DNA of 64,000 bases, from positions 1,968,501 through 2,032,500 of the forward strand of contig NZ_CP089928.1 of assembly GCF_021290385.1 (NCBI RefSeq), given 5' to 3'. The notes beneath the pieces were generated by a model. It saw only the letters and a program-made list of their open reading frames with translations, was not told where the DNA came from and made no database searches. The stretch is from Microbulbifer sp. YPW16. Lineage in GTDB: Bacteria; Pseudomonadota; Gammaproteobacteria; Pseudomonadales; Cellvibrionaceae. Each line of letters begins with the position of its first letter. Within the stretch, counting starts at the first letter, position 1. Below, piece after piece: positions 35,383 through 39,647 of this stretch. Position numbers and translations under genes: made by a program.

Positions 35383-36588
35383 ATGCATAAAATTGACGGC
35401 CCCCTGAACGGCCTGAAAGTCCTGGATTTCTCCACCCTGCTGCCGGGCCCCTACGCCAGCATGCTGCTGGCGGACATGGGCGCCGAGGTGCTGCGAATCG
35501 AGTCACCCAGCCGCCCCGACATGCTGCGCGGACTGCCTCCGATGGTGGGGGGCAATGGCCCGGGAGCGGAAAAGGTTTCTGCCGCCCATGCCAGTATCAA
35601 TCGCAACAAGAAATCCCTGGCGCTGGACCTGAAGAGTGAGCGCGCCGGTGAAATCATCAGGCGCCTGCTGACCGAATATGACGTGGTGCTGGAACAGTTC
35701 CGCCCCGGCGTGATGGACCGACTGGGCCTGGGTTACAGTACCCTGCGCAAGATGCGCAAGGACCTGGTTTACTGCTCCGTCACCGGCTACGGCCAGACCG
35801 GCCCGATGAAGGGCCGTGCCGGGCACGACATCAACTACCTGGCCCTGTCGGGACTGGCGAGCTACTCGGGCCGCGCCGACAGCGGCCCCACGCTCAGCGG
35901 TACCCAGCTGGCGGATATCGCTGGCGGCTCGCACCACGCGGTGATGGGCATCCTTGCCGCCGTGTACCAGCGCGAGAAAACCGGCAAGGGGAGCCATGTG
36001 GATATCAGCATGACCGACTGCGCCTTCGCCCTGAATGCCATCAGCGCCGCCAATGCCCTTGCCGGTGCCGGTGAACCACAACTGGGTGGCGAGCTGCTCA
36101 ATGGCGGCAGCTACTACGATTACTACCGCACTGCCGACGACCGCTACCTGTCGGTGGGCAGCCTCGAGCCCCAGTTCGCCGAGCAGTTCTTCCACGGCAT
36201 CGGCTACGGGGAGTGGATAGAGCGGGTGTTACAGCCGGACCAGCAGCACGCCCTGAAACGCGATATCAGCGAGGTTATCGCCAGCCGCCCGCTGGACCAC
36301 TGGATGCGGGTGTTTGAGGGCTGTGACGCCTGCGTGGAGCCGGTGCTGGGTTTCCTCGAGGCATCCCAGAGCGTCCTGATGCAGGAACGCGAGATGCTGT
36401 GCGACGCGGAACTCCCCAACGGCGAGACCCTGCACCAGGTCAATACACCACTGTCATTCGGCAGCGCCAAACCCCGCCGGCATGTAGCCGGCGCCCCGCT
36501 CGGCAGCCATACCCGCGAGCTGCTGCGTGACCTGGGCTACGATGGTGAGGAGATCGAGGCGCTGCGCAGCCAGGGCGTGATCGCCTGA
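35383..36588 (+). CDS. CaiB/BaiF family (class III) CoA transferase or acyl-CoA racemase
   Basis: 401 residues. LKVLDFSTLLPGPYASMLLADMGAEVLRIES, the N-terminal Rossmann-type motif, then YGQTGPMKGRAGHDINYLALSG with the catalytic Asp, and GKGSHVDISMTDCAF. The protein is close to alpha-methylacyl-CoA racemase (AMACR)-type members, which suits a branched-chain acyl-CoA pathway alongside the acyl-CoA dehydrogenase. ATG 35383, with AAGGGA upstream, is the family start; the open frame begins within the repeat region and is not used. Confidence 0.88.
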   Translation: MHKIDGPLNGLKVLDFSTLLPGPYASMLLADMGAEVLRIESPSRPDMLRGLPPMVGGNGPGAEKVSAAHASINRNKKSLALDLKSERAGEIIRRLLTEYDVVLEQFRPGVMDRLGLGYSTLRKMRKDLVYCSVTGYGQTGPMKGRAGHDINYLALSGLASYSGRADSGPTLSGTQLADIAGGSHHAVMGILAAVYQREKTGKGSHVDISMTDCAFALNAISAANALAGAGEPQLGGELLNGGSYYDYYRTADDRYLSVGSLEPQFAEQFFHGIGYGEWIERVLQPDQQHALKRDISEVIASRPLDHWMRVFEGCDACVEPVLGFLEASQSVLMQEREMLCDAELPNGETLHQVNTPLSFGSAKPRRHVAGAPLGSHTRELLRDLGYDGEEIEALRSQGVIA

Positions 36589-36604
36589 GCCTGGGCACAT
36601 CGCC

Positions 36605-36793
36605 ATGGCCCACCGCAAACCCCACCTGCCGGAGAAGACCTGCCCGGTGTGCGGGCTGCGGTTCTGCTGGAGAAGGAAATGGGCCAACTGTTGGGAACAG
36701 GTGAAATAGTGCAGTGAGCGCTGTCGCCGCCAACGCCAGCGGGGACAGCGAACGAGGCAAGACAGCGACGGCAGGGAGGCCGACCCCGAGTGA
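36605..36793 (+). pseudogene. DUF2256 zinc-ribbon gene with in-frame amber codon
   Basis: From ATG 36605 the frame reads MAHRKPHLPEKTCPVCGLRF and continues to KWANCWEQVK, then TAG at 36707-36709, then CSERCRR and a charged tail to TGA at 36791. DUF2256 proteins normally read VKYCSERCRR at this point, so the amber replaces a Tyr codon (TAC/TAT to TAG, one base). The stop splits the CxxC...CxxxC zinc ribbon. The downstream part is intact and its TGA overlaps the photolyase GTG (GTGA), so the full gene was recently or still is functional. Options: recent nonsense mutation, readthrough, or sequence error. Confidence 0.8.
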
Positions 36794-38094
36794 ACCTGGT
36801 CTGGTTCCGCAACGACCTGCGTACCGCGGATAACGCCGCACTGACCGCCGCCTGTAACGACGCCCGGCGGCGGGGCCGGCAGGTGCGGGCCGTCTACTGC
36901 CTGGACCCGCGCCAGTTCCAGCGCGACCGGTATGGCTTCCGGCGCACGGAAAAATTCCGCGCGCGCTTCCTCCTGCAGACCCTGGCCGAACTGCGCGCAC
37001 AGCTGGCCAGCCTGAATATCACCCTGCTGGTGCGCGACGATTACCCGGAAGCCGTGATCCCGGCACTGGTACGCAAGGCCGGTGTCTCCGACCTGTACCT
37101 GCAGCATGAGTGGACCCGGGACGACCGGCGGGTGGAAACCGCAGTGATGCGAGCCGAGGGTATGGCCCTGGTCACGCCACACCGATACTTCGACCAGTTC
37201 TTGCTGCACCCGGACGACGTGCCCTTCGCTACGGAAGAACTTCCTCGCGTGTTTACCGGGTTCCGCAAGGCCTGCGAAGCGGACTGGCAGGTGCGCGACT
37301 GCCTGCCCCGCCCGACGCCGATGCCCCGGGAAAACCAGGCAGCCGCCGGGGCCCCGCTGCCCACTCTGGCTGACCTGGGCCTCGAGGACTTTACCCCCGA
37401 CCCGCGCAGCGCATTTCCCTTCGATGGCGGCGAGCTGGCCGCCCGCCAGCGCATCCAGGAATACTTCTGGGACACCGAGAACCTGGCCCGCTACAAGCAC
37501 ACCCGCAACGGCATGATCGGCACCGAGTACAGCTCCAAGCTGTCCCCCTGGCTCGCCAACGGCAGTTTGTCGGCGCGGCAGGTATACCAACAGGTCCAAC
37601 AGTTCGAACGGGACGTAACTGCCAACGAGGATACCTACTGGCTGGTATTCGAACTGCTGTGGCGGGACTTCTTCCGCTACGTGAGCCTGAAGCACGGCGA
37701 CCGCATCTTCCAGCAGGGCGGCATCCTGCAGGAACAGTACGACTGGCACCGCGACCCGGAAGAGGTACAGCGTTGGATCAACGGCGAGACCGGGTACGAC
37801 TTCGTCAATGCCAATATGCGCGAAATCGCCACCACCGGCTGGATGAGTAACCGCGGCCGGCAGAATGTGGCCAGCTACTTTGCCCGCGAGCGCCAGCAGG
37901 ACTGGCGCATCGGCGCCGCCTACTTCGAGAGCCTGCTGCTGGACTACGACGTGCACAGCAATTACGGCAACTGGATGTACAACAGCGGCGTTGGCAACGA
38001 CCCGCGCGACCGCCACTTCAATATCGACAGCCAGGCAGACCGCTACGACCCGGACGGGGACTATCGCCGGCTGTGGCTACCCGGCAACGACTAA
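36790..38094 (+). CDS. DASH-type cryptochrome/photolyase
   Basis: 434 residues. N-terminal photolyase domain (LVWFRNDLRTADNAAL) and C-terminal FAD domain with GTEYSSKLSPWLANGSLSA, WRDFFRYVSLKHG, GYDFVNANMREIATTGWMSNRGRQN and FNIDSQADRYDPDGDY. The order and the WMSNRGRQNVASYF block are those of CRY-DASH, which repairs cyclobutane dimers in single-stranded DNA and may signal. The GTG start overlaps the stop of the DUF2256 gene, and the next flavoprotein starts 17 bases downstream, so the three form one transcript. Confidence 0.92.
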   Translation: MNLVWFRNDLRTADNAALTAACNDARRRGRQVRAVYCLDPRQFQRDRYGFRRTEKFRARFLLQTLAELRAQLASLNITLLVRDDYPEAVIPALVRKAGVSDLYLQHEWTRDDRRVETAVMRAEGMALVTPHRYFDQFLLHPDDVPFATEELPRVFTGFRKACEADWQVRDCLPRPTPMPRENQAAAGAPLPTLADLGLEDFTPDPRSAFPFDGGELAARQRIQEYFWDTENLARYKHTRNGMIGTEYSSKLSPWLANGSLSARQVYQQVQQFERDVTANEDTYWLVFELLWRDFFRYVSLKHGDRIFQQGGILQEQYDWHRDPEEVQRWINGETGYDFVNANMREIATTGWMSNRGRQNVASYFARERQQDWRIGAAYFESLLLDYDVHSNYGNWMYNSGVGNDPRDRHFNIDSQADRYDPDGDYRRLWLPGND

Positions 38095-38111: not shown

Positions 38112-39647
38112 ATGAAAAGACTGCGACTGATCCTCGGTGACCAGCTGAACCACAAGCACAGCTGGTACAGGAACGACGATGACGACACCCTGTATTTCAT
38201 CGCCGAGATGCGCCAGGAGACCGACTACACCAAGCACCATATCCAGAAAGTGGTGGCCTTCTTCGAGGCCATGGAAGCCTTCGCCGGCTGGCTGCGGGAC
38301 CAGGGCAAGAAGGTGGTGCACTACAAACTGGACGGCAAGAACAATACCCAGAAGCTGGGCACCAATATCGCCGCGCTGGTGGAGGAGCGCGCTATCGAAA
38401 AGTTCGAATACCAGCTGCCGGACGAATACCGCCTGGACCAGCAACTGAAACAGCTGGCGGACGACCTGAGCATCGAGTGTGAAGCCTTCGATACCGAGCA
38501 CTTCATCACCGGCCGCAATGAGCTGGCGGAGTTCTTCGAGGGTAAAAAGTCGCTGCTGATGGAGAGCTTCTACCGGCATATGCGCAAGAAGCACGATGTG
38601 CTGATGACGGACAACGGCAAGCCTGAAGGTGGCAAGTGGAACTTCGACCAGAGCAACCGCAGGAAGTGGAAGGGCCAGCCGCAGATCCCCCACGAGAAGG
38701 GCTTTCGCAAGGACGTACGCAAGACCCTGAAGCGCATCGAGACCGCCGGGGTAACAACCTTCGGCAATATCGACCCGCAGAACTTCAACTGGCCCACAAC
38801 CCGCGCAGACTGCCTCAAGGTACTGCGCTACTTCTGCGAGCATCTTTTAGTCCACTTCGGTGACTACCAGGATGCCATGGATCCGGACCAGGTCTACCTG
38901 TTCCACAGTCGCCTGAGCTTCGCCATGAACAGCAAGCTGCTGCACCCGATGGAAGTGATCCAGGCGGTGATCGAACACTGGCAAGACAACAAGTCCAGTA
39001 TCTCACTGAACGAGGTGGAGGGCTTCGTGCGGCAGATCCTCGGCTGGCGGGAGTACATGCGCGGTATCTACTGGAAGGAGATGCCCGGCTATGCCCGCTG
39101 CAACCGGCTCGACAATCAAAAGGACCTGCCCGGGTTTTACTGGACCGGCGACACACAGATGAACTGCCTGCACCACGCCATCAAAAACAGCCTGGACCAC
39201 GCCTACGCCCACCATATCCAGCGCCTGATGATCACCGGCAACTTCGCCCTGCTGCTGGGTGTGCACCCTGACCAGGTGGACGCCTGGTACCTGGGCATCT
39301 ATATCGATGCCATCGAGTGGGTGGAGATCACCAATACCCGCGGCATGAGCCAGTTCGCTGATGGCGGCCTGGTAGCCACCAAGCCCTACGTCAGCAGCGG
39401 CAGCTATATCGACAAGATGAGCAACTACTGCAAGGGCTGCCGCTATAACGTGAAGGAAAAGACCGGCGAGGACGCCTGCCCATTTAACAGCCTGTACTGG
39501 AATTTCCTGGCTGAGAAGCGGGAACACTTTGCGGGGAACCAGCGGATGGCGATGATGTTGAGTACCCTGGACAGAATGGACCCGGACGACCTGGAAGGCC
39601 TGCGCTCCCGGGCCCGTCAGGTGATTCGCAGCCCGCACGATTACTGA
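38112..39647 (+). CDS. iron-sulfur bacterial cryptochrome/photolyase (FeS-BCP, PhrB-like)
   Basis: 511 residues of the deoxyribodipyrimidine photolyase-related family (RLILGDQLNHKHSWY at the N-terminus). FAD-domain motifs include FGDYQDAM, HSRLSFAMNSKLLHP, GWREYMRGIYW and GNFALLLGVHP. Four candidate cluster Cys: one in YARCNRLD, two in NYCKGCRYN and one in DACPFN, matching the [4Fe-4S] ligands known from Agrobacterium PhrB, a (6-4) photolyase. Start ATG 38112 is 17 bases after the CRY-DASH stop. Likely role: light-driven (6-4) photoproduct repair. Confidence 0.92.
   Translation: MKRLRLILGDQLNHKHSWYRNDDDDTLYFIAEMRQETDYTKHHIQKVVAFFEAMEAFAGWLRDQGKKVVHYKLDGKNNTQKLGTNIAALVEERAIEKFEYQLPDEYRLDQQLKQLADDLSIECEAFDTEHFITGRNELAEFFEGKKSLLMESFYRHMRKKHDVLMTDNGKPEGGKWNFDQSNRRKWKGQPQIPHEKGFRKDVRKTLKRIETAGVTTFGNIDPQNFNWPTTRADCLKVLRYFCEHLLVHFGDYQDAMDPDQVYLFHSRLSFAMNSKLLHPMEVIQAVIEHWQDNKSSISLNEVEGFVRQILGWREYMRGIYWKEMPGYARCNRLDNQKDLPGFYWTGDTQMNCLHHAIKNSLDHAYAHHIQRLMITGNFALLLGVHPDQVDAWYLGIYIDAIEWVEITNTRGMSQFADGGLVATKPYVSSGSYIDKMSNYCKGCRYNVKEKTGEDACPFNSLYWNFLAEKREHFAGNQRMAMMLSTLDRMDPDDLEGLRSRARQVIRSPHDY

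What the first reader, a model, noticed from the sequence alone, without database searches (positions are those of the whole stretch)
36605..36793. In-frame amber codon inside a conserved zinc-ribbon gene next to photolyases
The DUF2256 frame is intact on both sides of TAG 36707-36709, which replaces the Tyr of the conserved VKYCSERC motif. The second half keeps its cysteines, and its TGA overlaps the photolyase GTG, the mark of a coupled operon. A long-dead gene would not normally keep both. It may be a fresh nonsense mutation, readthrough, or a sequencing error, and termination here could also lower photolyase translation.
Basis: partly seen in the sequence, partly recalled or inferred. Interest (0 to 1): 0.7.

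Follow-up and report, generated by a model that had tools for sequence, protein, structure and literature searches.

The report
Fresh stop codon in small zinc-ribbon gene
One bacterial genome carries a single-letter change that cuts short a small, poorly understood gene next to a light-driven DNA-repair type gene; relatives have the intact gene or none at all, so this looks like an ordinary recent gene-breaking mutation (or a one-base sequence error), not a new way of reading the code.

Summary
In detail: frame 36605-36793 is DUF2256 (PF10013) with one internal TAG at 36707-36709, and its TGA overlaps the GTG of a DASH-type cryptochrome/photolyase gene. The genome is a Microbulbifer. Of 12 Microbulbifer genomes with DUF2256, all 12 place it directly before this gene and only the window's has the stop. 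The relative with the closest DASH protein, M. sediminum TT37, has TAC. Codons 36-44, after the stop, differ from TT37 only silently, so the change looks young. Amber recoding is unsupported: RF1 is intact, TAG ends 4 of 45 gene-like stretches picked in the window, and no CTA-anticodon tRNA or pyrrolysyl-tRNA synthetase over cut-off was found (tRNA survey incomplete). Six other Microbulbifer keep DASH without a DUF2256 match; in two the upstream neighbour is the same, so the gene looks dispensable. DASH keeps its own purine-rich leader and start. Best reading: a recent, private nonsense mutation that removes the second CxxxC half of the zinc ribbon. A base error cannot be excluded without reads; readthrough is possible but has no positive evidence. 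Ordinary.

The parts
36605..36709 (+). DUF2256 gene up to the amber codon; predicted 34-aa truncated product with C13/C16 and two further cysteines (C21, C29)
   Evidence: translation; PF10013 49.1 bits for this piece alone
36707..36709 (+). in-frame TAG where other copies have a Tyr codon, rarely Phe
36710..36793 (+). remaining DUF2256 frame: CSERCRR core (second cysteine pair) and variable tail, ending in TGA
   Evidence: codons 36-44 differ from M. sediminum TT37 only by four silent changes; tail from codon 46 diverged, with a two-residue gap
36774..36779 (+). GGGAGG, probable ribosome-binding site of the DASH gene, 10 nt before its GTG
   Evidence: sequence; similar purine-rich stretch before the start in TT37; function inferred
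36790..38094 (+). DASH family cryptochrome/photolyase gene, frame intact
   Evidence: TIGR02765 491 bits, cut-off 317; PF00875 and PF03441; 434 aa open frame
38112..39647 (+). deoxyribodipyrimidine photolyase-related protein gene (DPRP), frame intact
   Evidence: PF04244 256 bits
35386..36588 (+). CoA-transferase family III gene upstream, frame intact
   Evidence: PF02515 322 bits

Best explanation
A single base change turned the conserved Tyr codon of a DUF2256 gene into TAG in this Microbulbifer lineage. Translation stops after residue 34, so the product lacks the second CxxxC pair and should not form the four-cysteine zinc ribbon (inferred). The gene is a young pseudogene or a strain-level loss-of-function allele. 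The downstream DASH gene is still expressed from its own ribosome-binding site, perhaps at a changed level (inferred). The stop, its absence in relatives and the intact neighbouring frames are shown; loss of function, fixation and expression effects are inferred.
For: Stop in 1 of 12 genus copies and, over the family cut-off, in 1 of 36 family-level genomes; the two sub-threshold matches carry TGAs. A Tyr codon in all 11 other genus copies. Codons 36-44 show no amino-acid change and four silent ones against TT37, so constraint lasted until recently. Tyr or Phe at this place in 51 of 51 other sequences read (46 distinct cores, 5 copies). Six of 18 DASH-bearing Microbulbifer have no DUF2256 match; in G014 and G037 the CoA-transferase lies directly upstream of DASH and no DUF2256 frame is seen between them. 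The window copy has P-to-R at a place where none of those 51 has R, compatible with relaxed constraint. TAG ends 4 of 45 gene-like stretches picked in the window, within one codon of where the TT37 alignment ends. RF1 is intact, 570.5 bits.
Against: No read data, so a base error is possible. Codons 1-34 still look constrained (dN/dS 0.07, five amino-acid changes), so there is no sign of long decay. The frame's dS against TT37 (1.17) is higher than that of four neighbouring genes (0.43-0.71), which I do not explain beyond the small sample. No second strain of the same species was available to show that the allele is fixed.
Confidence: 0.72

Rival explanations
1. Sequencing or assembly error: the true codon is a sense codon and the gene is intact.
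For: A single base separates either Tyr codon from TAG; the core after the stop is fully conserved in protein; no reads to check.
Against: The genome is one contig, rated 100% complete. A screen of the window against TT37 gave 38 stop places with coding-like flanks; 31 of them lie inside stop-free gene-like stretches, usually read in another frame or strand, and 7 do not: 8669, 18663, 29429, 36206, 36707, 50821, 50830. Of the 7, 36206 lies in the CoA-transferase gene read backwards and 36707 is the stop under study; the other five were not resolved. One search also printed 13 frameshift candidates; two were looked at on both sides and seemed to lie before the real starts, the rest were not resolved. 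So this control is noisy and only weakly against an error.
Confidence: 0.2
2. Readthrough: a near-cognate or suppressor tRNA inserts an amino acid at TAG often enough to give a full-length protein, with the stop lowering its amount.
For: The frame after the stop is kept and its core is constrained. Belinky et al. 2021 (PMC7918605; abstract and passages seen) argue that in-frame stops in constrained bacterial genes are widespread and may be read through for short periods.
Against: The stop is private to one genome, so constraint after it can simply predate it. ARAGORN at 46 loci covering all 48 tRNA matches gave no CTA anticodon, though some tRNAs that I would expect (e.g. Ile-GAT, Ala-TGC, Ser-GCT) are missing from that list. 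A pattern search for a CTA anticodon loop gave two hits, with no tRNA called at either locus. Pyrrolysyl-tRNA synthetase hits are below cut-off. RF1 intact. Near-cognate readthrough by ordinary tRNAs cannot be tested here.
Confidence: 0.06
3. Regulated or useful truncation: the 34-aa form, with four cysteines (C13, C16, C21, C29), is itself a product, or early termination tunes the coupled DASH gene.
For: The truncated form still has four Cys; a stop 80 nt before the DASH start could alter coupling.
Against: The stop is in no other copy read; Cys at position 21 is otherwise seen in one of 51 sequences (L027); folding of 36700-36830 is unremarkable, z = -0.04.
Confidence: 0.02

Closest known systems
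DUF2256 (PF10013), small zinc-ribbon-like protein of the TRASH clan (clan from a passage of PMC4047054)
   Same: Sequence family, both cysteine pairs in the frame, position directly before a DASH gene as in the 11 other Microbulbifer copies
   Different: Interrupted by TAG at the conserved Tyr
Nonsense pseudogenes / transient in-frame stops in bacteria (Belinky et al. 2021, PMC7918605; abstract and passages seen)
   Same: Single in-frame TAG in an otherwise constrained frame
   Different: Private to one genome, whereas that study focused on stops shared by two or more species
Amber-interrupted DUF2256 in G474 (same order)
   Same: TAG inside a DUF2256 core
   Different: At a Trp codon, with the Tyr kept; no photolyase in the 3.9 kb read around it

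Membership tests
DUF2256 (PF10013) | Profile score over the curated cut-off of 25 bits | tested here: met
   64.3 bits across the stop; 49.1 for the first piece alone
DUF2256 (PF10013) | Uninterrupted frame carrying both cysteine pairs | tested here: not met
   TAG between the pairs; hence filed as a disrupted copy
Nonsense pseudogene | Stop absent from orthologues, which run through | tested here: met
   11 of 11 other genus copies have no stop and a Tyr codon there
Nonsense pseudogene | Loss of function | not testable with these tools
   needs expression data or an assay
Programmed amber recoding (pyrrolysine or reassigned TAG) | tRNA with CTA anticodon and its synthetase | tested here: inconclusive
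   none found, but the tRNA survey is incomplete
Programmed amber recoding (pyrrolysine or reassigned TAG) | Stop conserved among orthologues | tested here: not met
   the list is cut, and its only listed stop is at another codon
DASH family cryptochrome (TIGR02765) | Score over the cut-off | tested here: met
   491 bits, cut-off 317

The most novel reading that the evidence does not exclude
The amber codon is read through at a useful level in this strain, giving a small amount of full-length DUF2256 with another residue in place of the Tyr and tuning the coupled DASH gene.
Probability: 0.04. Interest if true: 0.5.

Novelty: new member of a known kind. Interest (0 to 1): 0.15.

Why it matters
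Little in itself: a young nonsense allele. It is a natural knock-out of DUF2256 beside an intact DASH frame. Together with the six Microbulbifer that have DASH but no DUF2256 match, it suggests that this hardly studied small protein (2 papers in the library name it), which sits directly before DASH in 12 of 12 genus genomes that have it (Fisher p 2.7e-7 over 48 genomes, no correction for kinship), is not strictly needed for keeping DASH.

Tried and rejected
Amber reassignment was set aside as above. A restart in the DASH frame at GTG 36709 was considered and rejected: that frame reads GTG, CAG, then TGA (read). RNA folds: 36700-36830 is ordinary (z -0.04); around the DASH start the window folds more weakly than its shuffles (z 1.78 for 71 nt, 1.36 for 101 nt) and TT37 about as its shuffles (z -0.41 and 0.19), which points, if anywhere, to an accessible start. 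A promoter/terminator scan of 36300-36900 found none. Literature: 'DUF2256' gave 2 papers, passages seen; 'COG4338' (name recalled) gave 0; Microbulbifer with photolyase gave 1, listing only; a readthrough search gave 8, listing only except one, of which abstract and passages were seen. The screens for other broken genes in the window were noisy because of shadow frames; the greedy filter missed DUF2256 itself, which one search found. One fetched stretch of TT37 ended inside the DASH gene, which disturbed. The 38 stop places and the 45 stretches were copied by hand: 43 of the 63 stretches, 20 left out, plus the CoA-transferase and DASH; they are gene-like, not proven genes. One search's regular expression dropped L018, L020, L021, L027 and L031, which one search then read.

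Full report
Observation. The frame 36605-36793 reads as DUF2256 with one TAG at 36707-36709. The profile PF10013 spans the stop at 64.3 bits against a cut-off of 25. The frame's TGA overlaps the GTG of the next gene, which is a DASH family cryptochrome/photolyase (TIGR02765, 491 bits); the gene after it is a photolyase-related protein (PF04244). The gene before is a family III CoA-transferase (PF02515).

Organism. The window lies in a single-contig genome of 4,194,587 bases, rated 100% complete with 2.03% contamination. Its genus mate G026 has its DUF2256 locus on a contig of 516,069 bases, the length of the Microbulbifer sediminum TT37 contig that holds the closest named DASH gene, 90% identical in protein; so the genus is Microbulbifer. 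'Nearest relative' here means nearest by this gene among the genomes held.

Relatives. DUF2256 is found in 12 of 48 genus genomes; 11 have no stop and one, the window's, has the TAG. In the 11 the codon is TAC in ten and TAT in one. In the family search 38 of 144 genomes match, 36 of them over the cut-off; besides the window only the two matches below the cut-off bear stops, all TGA. In the class search 51 of 369 genomes match and the only stop listed is the window's. In the order search 172 of 390 match; that match list is cut, and its one listed stop, in G474, is a TAG at a Trp codon. Over 46 distinct cores the stop's place holds Tyr in 45 and Phe in 1; five copies dropped there have Tyr in 4 and Phe in 1. 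Many of these loci come from the DASH search and include Flavobacteriia.

Age of the change. Against TT37, codons 36-44 show no amino-acid change and four silent ones; codons 1-34 show five amino-acid changes and, by the Nei-Gojobori count, eleven silent differences (nine codons differ silently only); the tail from codon 46 is unlike TT37 and has a two-residue gap. Tails also vary between the other genus members, so that is not itself decay. By the same count dN/dS is 0.07 for codons 1-34, 0.05 for the core 1-44, 0.23 for codons 36 to the end, 0.16 for the whole frame, and 0.02 to 0.14 for four neighbouring genes. dS of the frame, 1.17, exceeds the neighbours' 0.43-0.71; with 60 codons I make nothing of it. 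The core was therefore constrained until recently. P-to-R in the first half is unseen in 51 other sequences, and Cys 21 is seen in one of them.

Dispensability. A close DASH gene (59% identity or more) is present in 18 of 48 genus genomes and in all 12 with DUF2256; from the coordinates of those two calls DUF2256 lies directly before it in all 12. Six have DASH without a DUF2256 match: G014, G017, G025, G028, G032, G037. In G014 and G037 the CoA-transferase directly precedes DASH with no DUF2256 frame between; in G017 and G032 an acyl-CoA dehydrogenase precedes it; the upstream genes of G025 and G028 were not identified (the two genes are recognised by eye from their likeness to the window's). 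Loss, rather than never having had the gene, is an inference for G014 and G037.

Decoding. Of 48 tRNA matches in the genome 46 are over the cut-off; ARAGORN on the 46 loci that cover all 48 found no CTA anticodon. Several tRNAs that I would expect from general knowledge are not in that list, so the survey is incomplete. A CTA-loop pattern search gave two places, fewer than its backward control (4 and 8 on the two strands), with no tRNA called at either. Pyrrolysyl-tRNA synthetase matches were under the cut-off; the 14 control genomes also ring, one of them over the cut-off. RF1 is intact. Of 45 gene-like stretches picked in the window, 26 end in TGA, 15 in TAA and 4 in TAG, these four within one codon of where the TT37 alignment ends.

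Translation of DASH. GGGAGG lies 10 nt before its GTG and TT37 has a similar stretch. A four-base overlap of stop and start is seen in 8 of the 11 other genus copies; two end before the DASH start and one runs on past it. So close coupling is usual but not universal in the genus. Ending translation 80 nt earlier may weaken coupling; this was not tested. Folding gives no sign that the start is hidden.

Verdict. A recent private nonsense mutation is most likely (0.72), a base error second (0.20), readthrough unlikely (0.06). The control for sequence quality is weak, so the base-error odds are kept where they were.

Noticed in passing
L193 (G474:C18:3611-3727, minus strand): A second DUF2256 copy in the same order carries a TAG, here at a conserved Trp codon, with the rest of its core intact; next to it on the same strand is an 857-aa frame that runs to the end of the stretch read, not a photolyase.
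   Followed up: partly
Microbulbifer G014, G017, G025, G028, G032, G037 (L196-L201): DASH genes without a DUF2256 match: after a CoA-transferase in two, after an acyl-CoA dehydrogenase in two, upstream gene not identified in two.
   Followed up: partly
L038-L041 and several of L059-L106: DUF2256 also lies shortly before the DASH gene in Leeuwenhoekiella and other Flavobacteriia, so the pairing is not confined to this genus.
   Followed up: no
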